Shown here: in pieces, positions 17,771 through 25,269 of the stretch | How the letters are laid out: each line of letters begins with the position of its first letter | Numbering within the stretch: position 1 is the first letter of the stretch | Assembly (NCBI GenBank): GCA_020058765.1 | Contig: JAGVDM010000005.1 | Coordinates: forward strand, 1 to 64,000 | Origin: Candidatus Peribacterales bacterium | GTDB lineage: Bacteria > Patescibacteriota > Gracilibacteria > Peribacterales > Peribacteraceae | Length of the DNA stretch: 64,000 nucleotides | Reading direction: 5' to 3' | Program-made: the position numbers and the translations under genes | The notes under the pieces: model-generated | Seen by the model: the letters and a program-made list of their open reading frames with translations, nothing else | Database searches by the model: none | Told to the model about the DNA's origin: nothing

Positions 17771-18160
17771 ATGCAGCAAGATATCCGTGACTACCACGAT
17801 TCCCTCTCGGCAGAAGACAAAGAGATATGCGACGTGCTGGCTGGTGAAATACTGCGTGCACTGCCCGACGCCCAATACAAGATTTGGCACAGGCACCCAG
17901 TGTGGTTCTTGGATGGGAACCCGATTGTTGGGTACCACAAACTGAAAGACTGCGTGCGATTACTCTTTTGGAGTGGCCAATCGTTTCATGAAGCTGGTCT
18001 CCACAAAGAAGGGAGCTTCAAAGCTGCAGAAGCTCGGTACACTTCGGCAGAGCAAATATCGAAGGATGACCTCACCCGTTGGCTCAAGAAATCTAAAGAC
18101 ATCCAGTGGGATTACAAAAACATCGTGAAGCGAAAGGGGCTACTGGAAAGACTGCGATAA
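17771..18160 (+). CDS. DUF1801 family protein
   Basis: 129 residues, beginning MQQDIRDYHDSLSAEDKEIC. The pattern KIWHRHPVWFLDGNPIVGYH and KLKDCVRLLFWSG, ending in a basic helix, resembles DUF1801/YdhG-type proteins, small alpha/beta proteins of unknown role. TAGAAT (17759-17764) 6 bases upstream supports the start. A second, diverged DUF1801 gene lies at 19277-19714. Confidence 0.75.
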   Translation: MQQDIRDYHDSLSAEDKEICDVLAGEILRALPDAQYKIWHRHPVWFLDGNPIVGYHKLKDCVRLLFWSGQSFHEAGLHKEGSFKAAEARYTSAEQISKDDLTRWLKKSKDIQWDYKNIVKRKGLLERLR

Positions 18161-19276: not shown

Positions 19277-19714
19277 CTATTTTTTTGCGTGCTCCCCTGC
19301 CCCAGCGAGCCCAAGGTTCTTCTCTGCTGCCTTTAAAACTTGTTTCAATGTATCGATATTGATGTCGCTTACGTTTTTGAAACGGATGCAACTTTTACCA
19401 ACACTCACTTTTCCGAGCTCCTTTTTGTACTTTTCGGCGAGGTACTGACCATCAACCACGGCACAAACATACAGACTGATGTATTGCTTCTGATTGGCGA
19501 GCGCAATCACTGGCCATTCAATCATCTCCTTCTTGTAATTCTTGTATGGAAACGCGCCATAACCGAGCATGTTGTACGAAAAGTATGGTTTGAGTTTTGG
19601 CACGGTTTTTTGAATAAAAGCATGCAGGTATTCCATAGCCCCGCGTCGATCGGCAGGGACAGCCTGCAGATACTCTTTCACAGTGGCAGCCTTTGTAGGC
19701 TTGAACATATTCAT
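19277..19714 (-). CDS. DUF1801 family protein (second copy)
   Basis: 145 residues starting MNMFKPTKAATVKEYLQAVP. The motifs FSYNMLGYGAFPYKNYKKEM and KVSVGKSCIRFKN with a final Lys-rich helix fit DUF1801. It is only distantly related to the copy at 17771-18160. The start at 19714 is set by TAGAAT (minus strand, 19725-19730) 10 bases upstream; the longer open frame upstream is not coding. It is divergent from the giant protease gene, with a shared 87-base promoter region. Confidence 0.75.
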   Translation of the reverse strand: MNMFKPTKAATVKEYLQAVPADRRGAMEYLHAFIQKTVPKLKPYFSYNMLGYGAFPYKNYKKEMIEWPVIALANQKQYISLYVCAVVDGQYLAEKYKKELGKVSVGKSCIRFKNVSDINIDTLKQVLKAAEKNLGLAGAGEHAKK

Positions 19715-19801
19715 AGACCTCTCAATTCTACAGTCTTTGTCATCAATTGTTGACCTATTCACAAAAGTGGTAAGCTCGATCACATTCCTTCCAGTTCTCC
19801 T

Positions 19802-22800
19802 ATGCGCCTCTCCCGTACAAGCCTGACCGTTGCGACATTGCTCTCGCTCACAGCTCAACCGCTGCTTGCAGCGCAAGATAGCGCCGCCACCCTCACATTC
19901 CCCTCGCCGATCGTGCTCACGCCCGATTCGTCTGCAGCCGACGTGCTGCGGCAGTCGGAGAATTTCGATGGCGAGGAGCTCACGGTGGGTGACGATATCT
20001 ACGTTTTCGATGAGAATGATCACCTCCGCATCAAGCCGAAAATCGGCTTCTGGTGCTGGCTACTGCGCAGTTGTACCAAGGGCGACGAAAGTGCAGTTGT
20101 CGTGGATCAGGAAGAAGCAAAAACCATCGTACAGAACATAGTGATACCCGATATTCAGCTGGAAATGCAGAGGGAAACAGGACGCGTGCTGCCACTGCTG
20201 GGTTTTTCGTGGCCCAAACTGCTTGGTGCCGGAACGGTAGTGGAGCGGATGTTCTCGCAGAACGCGCCGGTGAACGTGTCAGAAGATTCATGGTTCTTCT
20301 TCCTCGATCTCGATCCGCATGCGGGCTGGGGGCACCGCGCGGAATATGTACTGGTAGATGCAGCAACGGGGGACGTCTTCCGCAAGCGCGTGTTCTCGCC
20401 ACCAGTACTGGATGGCGAAACATGGTACGTATCGGTGGAGGAACGCTTCGATTCCCCGGATCGCTTCTTCCCGACTTCGATCGATGATCTACCTGCTGCC
20501 GGCGACTGGCCGCTTGTGCCAGAGTCAGAGAGTGCAGCGGATGATCCAGAACCAGAACTGCTTTCGGGCACAGAGAATATGCATACGTACCCAAGCATCG
20601 CGTCGCTGCTGCTCCGCGGGATTGACGAAGCATCTGCTGCCGGTACACAACCGTGTGCGGAACCGCGGAAGAAAGTGGCGATCGTCATCAATGGCGAACA
20701 CCCCGATCACGCAAAGCCCGGCGGCTACCAAGATGGTAAGAGCTTCCAAGCTGCAGCAGGTGCTGCCATGGGTATGTTCCGTCGGCTTGGTGTGCAATCC
20801 GGTGATATGCACTACATGAACCCGCAAACACACCCCACGCTCGCAGAGGTGAAGAGCGAAGTTGATCGGATCATCGCCACCATTGATCCATGCGACAAAC
20901 TCTTCTTCTATGTGGGAGGGCACGGCACCATTACCGATGAAGATGATGATGACAAGCCCGATTCCCTCTCGTCATCTATTACCTACAATGGCTCCACGAA
21001 GGGATACATGAACAAGGGTCGCGGTGGAGACTTGTCGATTGCTGAAACACTGGAACAAGTGAAGGCGAAGGATGTGAACATCATTCTCGACAGCTGCTTC
21101 TCTGGGTCATTCCAAGAGCTCGCTGAACAGCAAGCCGTGAGCCCGCAAGATGGCTCCACATGGCATGTGTTCACCTCGGCAGATAAAGATCATCCATCCT
21201 ATGGCGATGACGATCCTTATCGCGCCGGCCCATATATGGAAACACTATGGTATTGCGTTGCTCTCAAAATGCGGGAGATCCAAAACCCCACGATAGAACA
21301 AATAGAAGCTGCGATGCGTGAATGCCAAAAAGAGATGGCAGACAATCCGGAGCCCGGCAATCTGGCACCTGAGCAACCGAGCAGTGTGATCAGCACGGTT
21401 ATCACACTCGAAACCGGATCGCGCAGTGTGCAGGAAGGTGATGAAGACTCGACGACATCGTTCAACATCACACTAAAGCGCAGCAATACTCTTCGTTCAT
21501 TCGAGAACATCCCCTACTACATCTACGTGCCCAGTGAACCTGCTGCAAATCAGGCGACCGCAGGGCGTGATCACGAGAACATTCGTGAGAACCGCGCAAT
21601 GACTGCAAGTCTCACGGGAGACAGCTTGAGCACCACCATCTCGATTGGTGTCTATGGAGACAATGAGGTGGAAGGCGACGAAGTGTTCTACATCTGGTTC
21701 CCAACTCTGCATCAGATGGTGCTGGTAACGATCGTTGATGATGACAAACCAGAAGAGCAAGCCAGTGTTCCGCCACAAACATCTATCCCCCAAGAAACAG
21801 CTGTTGTCACGCTTCCTCCGATCGTTATGGACGGGAGTACTGCAGTTGGCTTGGACTACGTGATTGAATGGACGGAGGAAGAGCTGAATGAAGCGCCACA
21901 AGCTGGCGGCGACGGAACGATCACTATTGATATGAATGACCTTAAGGTCGGCGCGGGTGAAACTGTCACGGTCGATGTGATGGTAGAAGGCGGTGAAGGT
22001 GCAAAACCTGCACCGATCACCGTGAAGCTGTGTGACCCGTGTGAAAATGAGCGGCTTGCAGTGGAAAACAAGGCGAAAGAATGCGAGCAATTAAGCGCAC
22101 AGGCAACTGCGGCAGAAACCGCTATTGGAGCGGCTCAAGGCGAAGTGGCAACGGCTCAAGCCGATCTTGCCGCCGCAGAAGCAGCATTGGATACGTTCAA
22201 CAATCCACGCAGTTCTGCATCTTCCGATGGGCGCACAACCGATTCCACAGATTTGCGCATCATGGAAGCCTACAACCGCTCCCTCTGGTCGCAGTACGCT
22301 AACGGCGAGCTGACTGCACAAGAACTGGAGGCGAAGTGGGAGCAGGGCTTGAGCGACGAGGAGCGCCAGCGACTGCGCGAAGAGGAGCAGCAACGGCTCG
22401 AAGACGAGGTAGCCAAAGCCATTGATCGTTTGGATGCAGCGGAAACCGCGCTTGCGCAGCGTCGTGCAGCGAAAGAAGCGGCAGATGCAGCAGCTGCCGC
22501 TTGCAAAGCTGAGCTGGAGGCACTGCGCAAAGCATACGAAGACTGTGTAAAGGAACACTGCACACTCGCTCCAGAAGACATGAAATTCTCGGTCACGATG
22601 GATGTACGCATCATCGATAAATACGACTGGAATATTCCCGACTATTCACTCGAATTTGAAGAAGCTGATCCCGTGGTTGAAGAGGAAACAGATGATACGG
22701 AGAGCTTCTGGTGCGAGTGGTTTGGCCTCTTCTGTGACGAAGAGGAAGAGATGGATTTTGATGATTCGGAAAAACCGAAAGATGGCGATGAAGATCCCGA

Positions 22801-24115
22801 AGATGATCTTGATGATTCGGAACAACCGGAAGATGGCGATGAGAACACCGAAGAGGATTCGGATGACCCCTATGAGGGCAATGAGGAGGGAGCGCAGAAT
22901 GAGGAATGTACGGTAGGGGCAGATGCTGATGCTTGTGGCTTCGCGTGTGAAGTGGACTGCGTCATCGAATACACAAGACCCAACGGGAAAGGGTGTTACA
23001 CATGCCCCAATCTCAAGGATGTGTTCGTGCCGTGCGACGGACCCACACAAGACCAATCCACATGCGACAGGGGGTGCCCACGGATTTGCGAGCTCACGTA
23101 CACACGCGCCGATGGGCGGGGTTGCTACACATGTCCTACCAAGTCAGAAGAATGCGAAGCGCCCACTTTGCCCATGGAGGATTGCCGAAAAACGTGCAGT
23201 GGTACATGCGAAAATTCCTACACGCTCAGCAGCGGTACGGAATGTGTCACGTGCAAGGAAAACCTTGTAGCACCTCGCTATGAATGCGATGGCTCCACCA
23301 CAACGTTCGACGAATGCCTTTTCTCATGCCGGGAAAATGACAGTGAATCCTGTGAGAAGGTATACATGCGCCCAGATGGCGTGGATTGCTATGAGTGCAA
23401 GAAGCAGCCAACAACTACAGTCCCTGCACAGTGCCCGAACGGTACATCGGAACTCGCTGCGTGCGAAGACTTCTGCACCGAAGACGGAGGCGAATGCAAA
23501 AAAGCTTCTACTCGATCCGATGGCGTGAGCTGCTACCGATGCGAGGACAAGCCAGTCACCACGCCACCACCCAGCTGCCCTGCAAATTCCGCAAGCCTGC
23601 ATGATTGCCAGGAAATGTGCCCAGAGGATGGTAGTTGCACACCCATAAGCGGTGAGTGCTACCGCTGCGACGTACTCACCTGCCCCAACGGCACAACGAA
23701 GAACGAGTGTCCGTCTTCCTGCCCCAACGGATGTGACGTTGCAGCGCAGCAGGGTGATACCACATGCTACAAGTGCAAGCAGAGCTGTGAAGACGTCTGT
23801 GCGGGTCAGGGCTACGCACAGGTGGGCATCGACTGGTCCAACTACATCCAGAGCTACATTTCGGAATACACATGCGTATCGGGAGCTTCCATTGGCATTC
23901 AGCAAGCGACCATTGGGAGTTGCGTGTGCTCGAATCAGCCGAGCATCACCATGAATACCACCGTGCCAATCTGCAAAGGCACGCCGTGTGGAGATGTAAC
24001 ATGCGGCAGCTCAACAAGCTGCCCAGTGGAAGGCGGCACCGTCACGGTGAACTGCAACTGGAGTGGCTGGCAGAAAGTAGACGTGAACCAATTCAAACCA
24101 GTCATCGGCCAGTAA
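19802..24115 (+). CDS. Giant secreted caspase-like protease with Cys-rich repeats
   Basis: 1437 residues. A signal peptide (residues 1-24, ending LLAA) is followed by about 250 residues of unknown fold. Residues about 285-500 form a caspase-like (clan CD) domain, with KKVAIVINGE opening it, His374 in YVGGHGT and Cys432 in LDSCFSGSF as the catalytic pair. A Calx-beta-like stretch follows (about 540-645, VQEGDEDSTTSF..DDDK). Residues about 745-925 form an Ala/Glu-rich coiled coil. An acidic Asp/Glu linker follows with a duplicated DDSE(K/Q)P(K/E)DGDE unit. Residues about 1035-1335 hold seven Cys-rich repeats of the form C-x3-C-x(2-5)-C..GxxCYxC. The C-terminus has further Cys pairs. No membrane anchor or sortase motif is seen. 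Caspase-like specificity cannot be told from sequence. Confidence 0.85.
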   Translation: MRLSRTSLTVATLLSLTAQPLLAAQDSAATLTFPSPIVLTPDSSAADVLRQSENFDGEELTVGDDIYVFDENDHLRIKPKIGFWCWLLRSCTKGDESAVVVDQEEAKTIVQNIVIPDIQLEMQRETGRVLPLLGFSWPKLLGAGTVVERMFSQNAPVNVSEDSWFFFLDLDPHAGWGHRAEYVLVDAATGDVFRKRVFSPPVLDGETWYVSVEERFDSPDRFFPTSIDDLPAAGDWPLVPESESAADDPEPELLSGTENMHTYPSIASLLLRGIDEASAAGTQPCAEPRKKVAIVINGEHPDHAKPGGYQDGKSFQAAAGAAMGMFRRLGVQSGDMHYMNPQTHPTLAEVKSEVDRIIATIDPCDKLFFYVGGHGTITDEDDDDKPDSLSSSITYNGSTKGYMNKGRGGDLSIAETLEQVKAKDVNIILDSCFSGSFQELAEQQAVSPQDGSTWHVFTSADKDHPSYGDDDPYRAGPYMETLWYCVALKMREIQNPTIEQIEAAMRECQKEMADNPEPGNLAPEQPSSVISTVITLETGSRSVQEGDEDSTTSFNITLKRSNTLRSFENIPYYIYVPSEPAANQATAGRDHENIRENRAMTASLTGDSLSTTISIGVYGDNEVEGDEVFYIWFPTLHQMVLVTIVDDDKPEEQASVPPQTSIPQETAVVTLPPIVMDGSTAVGLDYVIEWTEEELNEAPQAGGDGTITIDMNDLKVGAGETVTVDVMVEGGEGAKPAPITVKLCDPCENERLAVENKAKECEQLSAQATAAETAIGAAQGEVATAQADLAAAEAALDTFNNPRSSASSDGRTTDSTDLRIMEAYNRSLWSQYANGELTAQELEAKWEQGLSDEERQRLREEEQQRLEDEVAKAIDRLDAAETALAQRRAAKEAADAAAAACKAELEALRKAYEDCVKEHCTLAPEDMKFSVTMDVRIIDKYDWNIPDYSLEFEEADPVVEEETDDTESFWCEWFGLFCDEEEEMDFDDSEKPKDGDEDPEDDLDDSEQPEDGDENTEEDSDDPYEGNEEGAQNEECTVGADADACGFACEVDCVIEYTRPNGKGCYTCPNLKDVFVPCDGPTQDQSTCDRGCPRICELTYTRADGRGCYTCPTKSEECEAPTLPMEDCRKTCSGTCENSYTLSSGTECVTCKENLVAPRYECDGSTTTFDECLFSCRENDSESCEKVYMRPDGVDCYECKKQPTTTVPAQCPNGTSELAACEDFCTEDGGECKKASTRSDGVSCYRCEDKPVTTPPPSCPANSASLHDCQEMCPEDGSCTPISGECYRCDVLTCPNGTTKNECPSSCPNGCDVAAQQGDTTCYKCKQSCEDVCAGQGYAQVGIDWSNYIQSYISEYTCVSGASIGIQQATIGSCVCSNQPSITMNTTVPICKGTPCGDVTCGSSTSCPVEGGTVTVNCNWSGWQKVDVNQFKPVIGQ
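22754..22843 (+). repeat. Tandem 51-base repeat inside the protease gene
   Basis: Two near-identical blocks start at 22754 and 22805, 51 bases apart, sharing GATGATTCGGAA and GATGGCGATGA. They encode the acidic linker unit and are a likely site of repeat-number change. Confidence 0.8.
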
Positions 24116-24214
24116 TTTCAGTCGCATTCCTGCTCCATGCGTGCCCAACTGAGTGCGCATGGAGCTTGTGTGTATTGGGCAACACATAGCGCACAAGCAT
24201 GCTATGATGTGCGC

Positions 24215-24551: not shown

Positions 24552-25211
24552 CTATTTGATCGTACTGAATTTTGCAGATGCTTTGTCTTCTCTGTCTGCC
24601 TTGAGGCGGAAGACCATTTCTGCCATTTCGCCACGCGTAAGTGTCTGATCGAAGCGCTTGATGCTTGTTGGGATCGCGTTGAGGTCAGAGAGGCGCTGCA
24701 CATAAGGGCGGTACCAGAATTCTCCTGTGTCCTTTTTCTCGATCTGAAGGGAGAACACGTTCGAGAGAATTTTGGCTGCTTCCACGAAGTTGATGGATTC
24801 CGCAGGACGATAGGTGCCATCTGGATAACCATCAATGATCTTTTTCACCTTGGAGTAGCACACTTCTGGAGCGTACCAAGCATCCCTTGCGACATCCGGG
24901 AAGAAGATGATTGCAGAAGACCCAGAGACGTTTTCTGGGATGCAATTACTTAAATTATTTGTATCCAAGATGAACGGATTCACAATGAATTTCACAAATT
25001 CGGCACGATTCACGCGGTTTTCCGCTTTGAATGTGCCGTCCAAGTACCCTTTCAGGACGTTTTGCGTTCGAAGGTATTCGATACCTTCATAGTATGTGCT
25101 GCCTTCTGGCACATCTGTGAACGGCTGCTGCGAGAATGCGGAATCCTGTGCAAAGGCGCCAGTGGTAATAAAGAGTGAGCCGATGATGCCGAGACTAAGC
25201 ATGTGTCTCAT
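24552..25211 (-). CDS. S-layer homology (SLH) domain protein
   Basis: 219 residues. A signal peptide (MRHMLSLGIIGSLFITTGAFA) is followed by three SLH repeats, each with a FxDV..xxYYxGI..GYxDGTF pattern: QPFTDVPEGSTYYEGIEYLR, FFPDVARDAWYAPEVC with IDGYPDGTY, and a third with LTRGEMAEMVF. SLH domains bind secondary cell-wall polymers of monoderm cells. With little else in the protein it may be a pure anchoring or wall protein. The start at 25211 follows a pyrimidine-rich leader. The stop codon faces a small membrane protein gene. Confidence 0.85.
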   Translation of the reverse strand: MRHMLSLGIIGSLFITTGAFAQDSAFSQQPFTDVPEGSTYYEGIEYLRTQNVLKGYLDGTFKAENRVNRAEFVKFIVNPFILDTNNLSNCIPENVSGSSAIIFFPDVARDAWYAPEVCYSKVKKIIDGYPDGTYRPAESINFVEAAKILSNVFSLQIEKKDTGEFWYRPYVQRLSDLNAIPTSIKRFDQTLTRGEMAEMVFRLKADREDKASAKFSTIK

Positions 25212-25246
25212 ACAGAGAGGGGGGAAAGAGAATGAGGGGTGATTCC

Positions 25247-25269
25247 GAATGCAACGCATTCAGTGAATG
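25247..25269. promoter_or_regulatory. Overlapping palindromes upstream of the SLH gene
   Basis: GAATGC-AAC-GCATTC (25247-25261) overlaps CATTCA-G-TGAATG (25257-25269). They lie 36-58 bases upstream of the SLH gene start, a plausible operator. The GCATT/AATGC half-sites resemble the copper-island palindrome at 9689. Confidence 0.35.

What the first reader, a model, noticed from the sequence alone, without database searches (positions are those of the whole stretch)
19802..24115. 1437-residue secreted caspase-like protease with Calx-beta, coiled coil and Cys repeats
The catalytic His374/Cys432 pair sits in a large extracellular protein with seven Cys-rich repeats and a tandem acidic linker. A small-celled CPR bacterium devoting 4.3 kb to it suggests a role in attachment to, or attack on, a host cell. 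The combination is not one I know as a described family.
Basis: partly seen in the sequence, partly recalled or inferred. Interest (0 to 1): 0.75.

Follow-up and report, generated by a model that had tools for sequence, protein, structure and literature searches.

The report
Surface-displayed bacterial caspase on Cys-rich stalk
A small symbiont-like bacterium of the Peribacteria group encodes a large exported protein in which a caspase-type protein-cutting enzyme is joined to a long cysteine-rich surface stalk that its relatives make without any enzyme; the cell may thus carry a cutting tool on its outside, but what it cuts is unknown.

Summary
Window 19802-24115 (+) is one intact 1437-aa ORF: signal peptide, caspase-family (Peptidase C14) domain with His374/Cys432, a Calx-beta-like domain, coiled-coil hairpin, tandem acidic linker, seven six-Cys repeats and a Cys-rich C-terminal domain. 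(1) The protein joins two lineages. Residues ~100-520 (a domain here called WFF, plus the caspase) recur in only 5 other genomes of 353 in the class, always behind S-layer-homology domains; four of the five keep both catalytic residues, one has lost both. Residues ~670-1437 belong to large Cys-rich surface proteins of about 11 other Peribacteria-family genomes, none with a caspase; most have a first coiled-coil module where this protein has the protease. (2) Very Cys-rich large extracellular Peribacteria proteins with a suspected attachment role were already described in 2016. The C-terminal domain also occurs on a contig filed as Woesearchaeota.

Best reading: a secreted, probably active, Arg/Lys-specific orthocaspase held on a Cys-rich scaffold that trims proteins at the cell surface or cell-cell interface. 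Host attack is possible, not shown. New variant of a known kind. There is no direct evidence of activity, substrate or localisation.

The parts
19802..24115 (+). whole gene, 1437 aa plus stop
19802..19873 (+). signal peptide, residues 1-24, SPase I type, no lipobox
   Evidence: read from the sequence
19874..20074 (+). N-terminal segment, residues 25-91, ending in FWCWLLRSC; weakly similar to a middle segment of scaffold protein L032
   Evidence: E 7e-4 in a small database
20099..20479 (+). WFF domain with leading helix, residues ~100-226; always N-terminal to the caspase in the homologues found
20480..20665 (+). flexible linker, residues 227-288 (block pLDDT mostly 22-30); contains LLLR-G and EPRKK
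   Evidence: possible self-cleavage sites are inference
20666..21361 (+). caspase-like (Peptidase C14) domain, residues ~289-520
20921..20923 (+). catalytic His374
   Evidence: aligned with GHG of homologues
21089..21097 (+). Asp430-Ser431-Cys432, catalytic Cys and invariant Asp
21398..21715 (+). Calx-beta-like domain, residues 533-638
   Evidence: PF03160, sub-threshold
22007..22576 (+). coiled-coil hairpin with DSTDL..N..LW..Y cap, residues 736-925
22706..22735 (+). FWCEWFGLFC motif, shared with scaffold relatives L032, L034, L040
22736..22906 (+). tandem acidic linker, residues 979-1035
   Evidence: read from the sequence
22907..23776 (+). seven six-Cys repeats, residues 1036-1325 (the seventh overlaps the conserved C-terminal region)
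23663..24112 (+). conserved Cys-rich C-terminal region, residues 1288-1437

Best explanation
A secreted orthocaspase-type cysteine endopeptidase displayed outside the cell on a Cys-rich surface scaffold. Shown by sequence: export signal, C14 domain with intact His/Cys dyad, fusion to a scaffold that relatives make without it. Inferred: disulfide-rich repeats and the C-terminal domain bind or hold, the coiled-coil hairpin and Calx-beta-like domain act as stalk and spacer; the WFF domain is a built-in partner of the enzyme (prodomain, or substrate- or regulator-binding); the enzyme may cut itself in the flexible linker and cleaves substrates after Arg or Lys. The likeliest substrates are proteins of its own surface or of the interface with neighbouring cells, for maturing or shedding surface proteins or for obtaining peptides; attack on a host is one special case.
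For: C14 domain above the Pfam cut-off. Dyad intact, and kept in four of five homologues. Signal peptide and 67 cysteines. All five class homologues have SLH domains, a wall/S-layer attachment module, so the caspase unit is a surface unit also outside this family. The scaffold half is 35-50% identical, over the Cys-rich C-terminal part, to large signal-peptide-bearing proteins of relatives. Large Cys-rich extracellular proteins are typical of Peribacteria, with attachment proposed (PMC4736985). Invariant Asp430 and basic P1 preference of characterised homologues.
Against: No activity, substrate or localisation data. One class homologue is a pseudo-enzyme (L047), so the unit can serve without catalysis. 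The protease fusion is in a single genome. The caspase model is of low confidence (mean pLDDT 48). The anchor of this protein is not identified: no SLH, lipobox or C-terminal membrane segment.
Confidence: 0.55

Rival explanations
1. Host-attack effector: the Cys-rich part binds a partner cell and the caspase cuts that cell's surface proteins, aiding attachment or predation.
For: Attachment role proposed for such proteins in Peribacteria (PMC4736985); the C-terminal domain occurs in a protein filed under Woesearchaeota, another symbiont-like lineage; the 2012 survey speculates on extracellular caspases acting on neighbouring cells (PMC3501461).
Against: No known partner or substrate; sporadic distribution (1 of 74 family genomes, 6 of 353 class genomes) does not suggest a core host-attachment function.
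Confidence: 0.2
2. The caspase domain is here a binding or structural module with little or no proteolytic role (pseudo-enzyme-like).
For: L047 has lost both catalytic residues and still keeps the architecture; pseudo-orthocaspases are common in some bacterial groups (PMC6426788).
Against: His, Cys and Asp430 are intact here and in four of five homologues.
Confidence: 0.12
3. A cell-death or defence caspase acting inside the cell.
For: Many prokaryotic caspases are discussed in cell death and conflict systems; a PADLOC caspase model matches weakly, E 4e-4.
Against: Signal peptide, 67 cysteines, surface-protein relatives and SLH-bearing homologues all point outside; no partner genes of a defence system were recognised among the neighbours scanned.
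Confidence: 0.05
4. Assembly chimera or chance fusion of two genes.
For: The exact architecture is seen once; the two halves have separate relatives.
Against: One continuous frame in a 138-kb contig of a 10-contig, 99.3% complete genome. The N-terminal half has no SLH domain, and residues 25-91 resemble a segment of a scaffold relative, so scaffold-type sequence appears to lie on both sides of the caspase unit.
Confidence: 0.05

Closest known systems
Prokaryotic orthocaspases / metacaspases (Peptidase C14; PMC3501461, PMC6426788)
   Same: C14 domain with His/Cys dyad, Asp two before the Cys, fused to accessory domains; some are predicted to be extracellular
   Different: WFF domain before the caspase, Calx-beta-like domain, coiled-coil hairpin and Cys-rich scaffold after it; the main text of the 2012 survey mentions neither Calx nor S-layer
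SLH-WFF-caspase proteins of other genomes of the class (L042, L046, L047, L064, L065)
   Same: same two-domain unit, residues ~100-520, exported or wall-attached
   Different: SLH domains at the N-terminus in place of the Cys-rich scaffold at the C-terminus; one is a pseudo-enzyme
Large Cys-rich extracellular proteins of Peribacteria (PMC4736985)
   Same: large, exported, very Cys-rich, same lineage; scaffold relatives occur in several named Peribacteria/Peregrinibacteria
   Different: no caspase in any scaffold relative found here; I could not check the paper's own protein list (supplement) against this family
Caspase, EACC1-associated type (NF047832)
   Same: matches residues 344-468, E 5e-8
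   Different: 32.6 bits against a cut-off of 140; not a member

Membership tests
Peptidase C14 (caspase/metacaspase/orthocaspase) | domain match above the curated cut-off | tested here: met
   PF00656 25.4 bits against 21.4, isolated domain; missed when the whole protein or the whole genome is scanned
Peptidase C14 (caspase/metacaspase/orthocaspase) | His/Cys catalytic dyad after the two core strands | tested here: met
   His374 and Cys432; kept in four of five homologues
Peptidase C14 (caspase/metacaspase/orthocaspase) | caspase fold | tested here: inconclusive
   metacaspase and caspase-8 are top Foldseek matches, but E above 0.001 on a model of pLDDT 48
Peptidase C14 (caspase/metacaspase/orthocaspase) | endopeptidase activity, Arg/Lys at P1 in non-metazoan members | not testable with these tools
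   needs an assay; Asp430 invariant
Type I metacaspase (p20 plus p10) | p10 subunit homologue | tested here: inconclusive
   the C14 match runs 80 residues past the catalytic Cys (to residue 512), but no p10-specific model was run; hence the looser name orthocaspase
EACC1-associated caspase NF047832 | score above 140 bits | tested here: not met
   32.6 bits
Calx-beta domain PF03160 | score above 27 bits | tested here: not met
   18.4 bits, E 0.0022, the only Pfam match of the segment; Ig-like folds among the Foldseek matches
Peribacteria coiled-coil/Cys-repeat surface scaffold (defined here) | signal peptide, coiled-coil module, six-Cys repeats, conserved C-terminal domain | tested here: met
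   one coiled-coil module where most complete relatives have two
SLH-WFF-caspase proteins | SLH domains | tested here: not met
   none in this protein; present in all five homologues

The most novel reading that the evidence does not exclude
A CPR symbiont or predator has turned a caspase-family protease into a surface-borne tool that binds and cuts proteins of a partner cell, using a Cys-rich binding domain shared with DPANN archaea and a common stalk on which head modules (protease or coiled coil) are exchanged.
Probability: 0.2. Interest if true: 0.75.

Novelty: new variant of a known kind. Interest (0 to 1): 0.48.

Why it matters
Prokaryotic caspase homologues are mostly discussed as intracellular cell-death or defence proteases. 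A small class-specific group of exported, wall- or scaffold-attached caspases in CPR bacteria gives a testable case for extracellular use and names a concrete candidate enzyme for the open question of how CPR cells modify their own or a partner's surface. The stalk with interchangeable heads, and the C-terminal domain shared with a Woesearchaeota-labelled protein, also point to exchange of surface parts between small symbiont-like lineages.

Tried and rejected
Pfam on the whole protein gave nothing useful; isolated domains did. The PF00656 six-frame search of the own genome missed the domain, so absence by that route is not evidence. A family-wide survey with NF047832 brought up one other caspase-like protein (G041), without evident signal peptide and of another architecture. 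Phages and plasmids: no match; viral contigs: no relative of the C-terminal domain. The first genome-contig scan with the single protein found nothing; the profile scan did. The profile match of the C-terminal domain to fungal LmJ1 (E 0.018) looks driven by Cys composition and was not followed. Fold search of the scaffold model gave only generic coiled coils, such as RipA, PI3K and SMC arms. The tree of coiled-coil modules is too weakly supported to say which of the two modules this protein keeps. Gene order around scaffold genes is not conserved, so orthology by position could not be shown. C-terminal domain as a wall anchor: considered, but the Woesearchaeota relative starts with a lipobox (LLSGC) and would already be membrane-anchored, so an exposed binding role fits at least as well (inference). 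Coordinate slips; whole genome not available as a file.

Full report
Observation. The ORF at 19802-24115 (+) is intact and 1437 aa long, and a search of the own genome finds only this one copy. Residues 1-24 read as a signal peptide. The isolated domain passes the Pfam cut-off for Peptidase C14 (25.4 against 21.4 bits); the NCBIfam model matches below its cut-off and the PADLOC caspase model weakly. AlphaFold2 on a shallow alignment of six sequences gives a poor model (mean pLDDT 48), yet Foldseek places Candida glabrata metacaspase and caspase-8 on top in the PDB, all at E above 0.001. The Calx-beta call is sub-threshold (E 0.0022). The coiled-coil hairpin and the C-terminal domain are modelled with fair to good confidence. 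Six Cys repeats fit a strict spacing against 0.01 expected from shuffles, and a shortened seventh lies at 1259-1289. The acidic region is 50% Asp/Glu over 80 residues.

Two lineages joined. Relatives found by the C-terminal domain are named Peribacteria or Peregrinibacteria, plus one contig named Woesearchaeota. Among 115 relatives searched with the whole protein, 13 genomes match: 12 of the same taxonomic family, counting the own genome and one marginal match full of stops (G026), and G081 of the class, which matches the caspase half only. The C-terminal profile finds 10 of 74 family genomes, one of them (G120) new. The scaffold relatives that I read (L031 to L038, L040) mostly consist of a signal peptide, two coiled-coil modules with a DSSDL..N..LW..Y cap, variable linkers, six-Cys repeats and the C-terminal domain. 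Exceptions: L036 is a short form with repeats and C-terminal domain only, L038 runs off its contig, and L040 has a different C-terminus. None has a caspase.

The caspase half occurs in one of the 74 family genomes and in five further genomes of the 353 searched in the class; an even draw of 380 genomes over the phylum found only the own genome. In all five the unit sits behind SLH domains and contains the same ~80-residue WFF domain, which was never found without the caspase (the profile was built from these six, so only the absence elsewhere is informative). This protein thus looks like a domain-swap product: an exported caspase unit on a Peribacteria surface scaffold, in place of one coiled-coil module. 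A weak similarity of residues 25-91 to the middle of scaffold protein L032 (E 7e-4 in a small database) suggests scaffold-type sequence on both sides of the caspase unit, which speaks against a simple assembly chimera.

Catalysis. The dyad is kept in L042, L046, L064 and L065 and lost in L047 (His to Asp in the aligned column, Cys to Ser). Asp430 is invariant. In T. brucei MCA2, Asp95 and Asp211 bind basic P1 residues (PMC8283722); Asp211 lies two residues before that enzyme's catalytic Cys (own knowledge). I therefore expect Arg/Lys and not Asp specificity (inference). Apart from Cys432 the protein has 66 cysteines, an even number, mostly in the repeats and C-terminal domain, as expected of a disulfide-bonded exported protein (counts; inference).

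What is known. Anantharaman and colleagues (PMC4736985) described large, very Cys-rich, mostly signal-peptide-bearing proteins in Peribacteria, many in a 14-gene cluster, and proposed rigidity or attachment; the scaffold is therefore not new in kind. The 2012 survey of prokaryotic caspase homologues (PMC3501461) lists possible extracellular members and speculates on action at the cell surface or on neighbouring cells; 'Calx' and 'S-layer' do not occur in its main text. Searches of an open-access library found no paper on a CPR caspase of this kind.

Mechanism. Shown: export signal, intact active-site residues, fusion of a caspase unit to a Cys-rich scaffold. Inferred: display outside the cell, stalk and binding roles of the scaffold, self-processing in the linker 227-288, Arg/Lys specificity, and substrates at the cell surface or cell-cell interface. 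Host attack is compatible with the data but not specifically supported; the sporadic distribution argues against a core host-attachment role.

Verdict. A real, coherent and unusual architecture; new variant of a known kind; interest 0.48.

Noticed in passing
L056 8126-10381 (JAGVYP010000010.1): A 751-aa protein on a contig filed as Woesearchaeota, starting with a lipobox, ends in the same Cys-rich C-terminal domain (37% identity, E 2e-16): possible exchange of a surface domain between CPR bacteria and DPANN archaea, or a misbinned contig.
   Followed up: partly
L047 5322-7262: SLH-bearing homologue of the caspase unit that has lost both catalytic residues (His to Asp column, Cys to Ser): a pseudo-caspase on the cell surface.
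   Followed up: partly
L036 7541-8413 (-): Short 290-aa protein made only of Cys repeats and the C-terminal domain, with a non-canonical lipobox-like start (LLAQC).
   Followed up: no
window 24552-25259 (-): SLH-domain protein (235 aa) just downstream of the caspase gene on the other strand, of interest because all homologues of the caspase unit carry SLH domains themselves.
   Followed up: no
window 24132-24165 (+): Terminator-like stem-loop (13 pairs) right after the stop codon of the caspase gene; the number of such sites in the region is not above chance.
   Followed up: no
window 17771-18160 (+) and 19277-20023 (-): Two DUF1801 genes within 2 kb; the second is divergent from the caspase gene, and its listed GTG start overlaps that gene, an internal ATG (MNMFKPTK) being the likelier start.
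   Followed up: no
L090 3235-5187 (G041): Another caspase/C13-like protein in the same family (650 aa), without evident signal peptide and with a different N-terminal half.
   Followed up: partly
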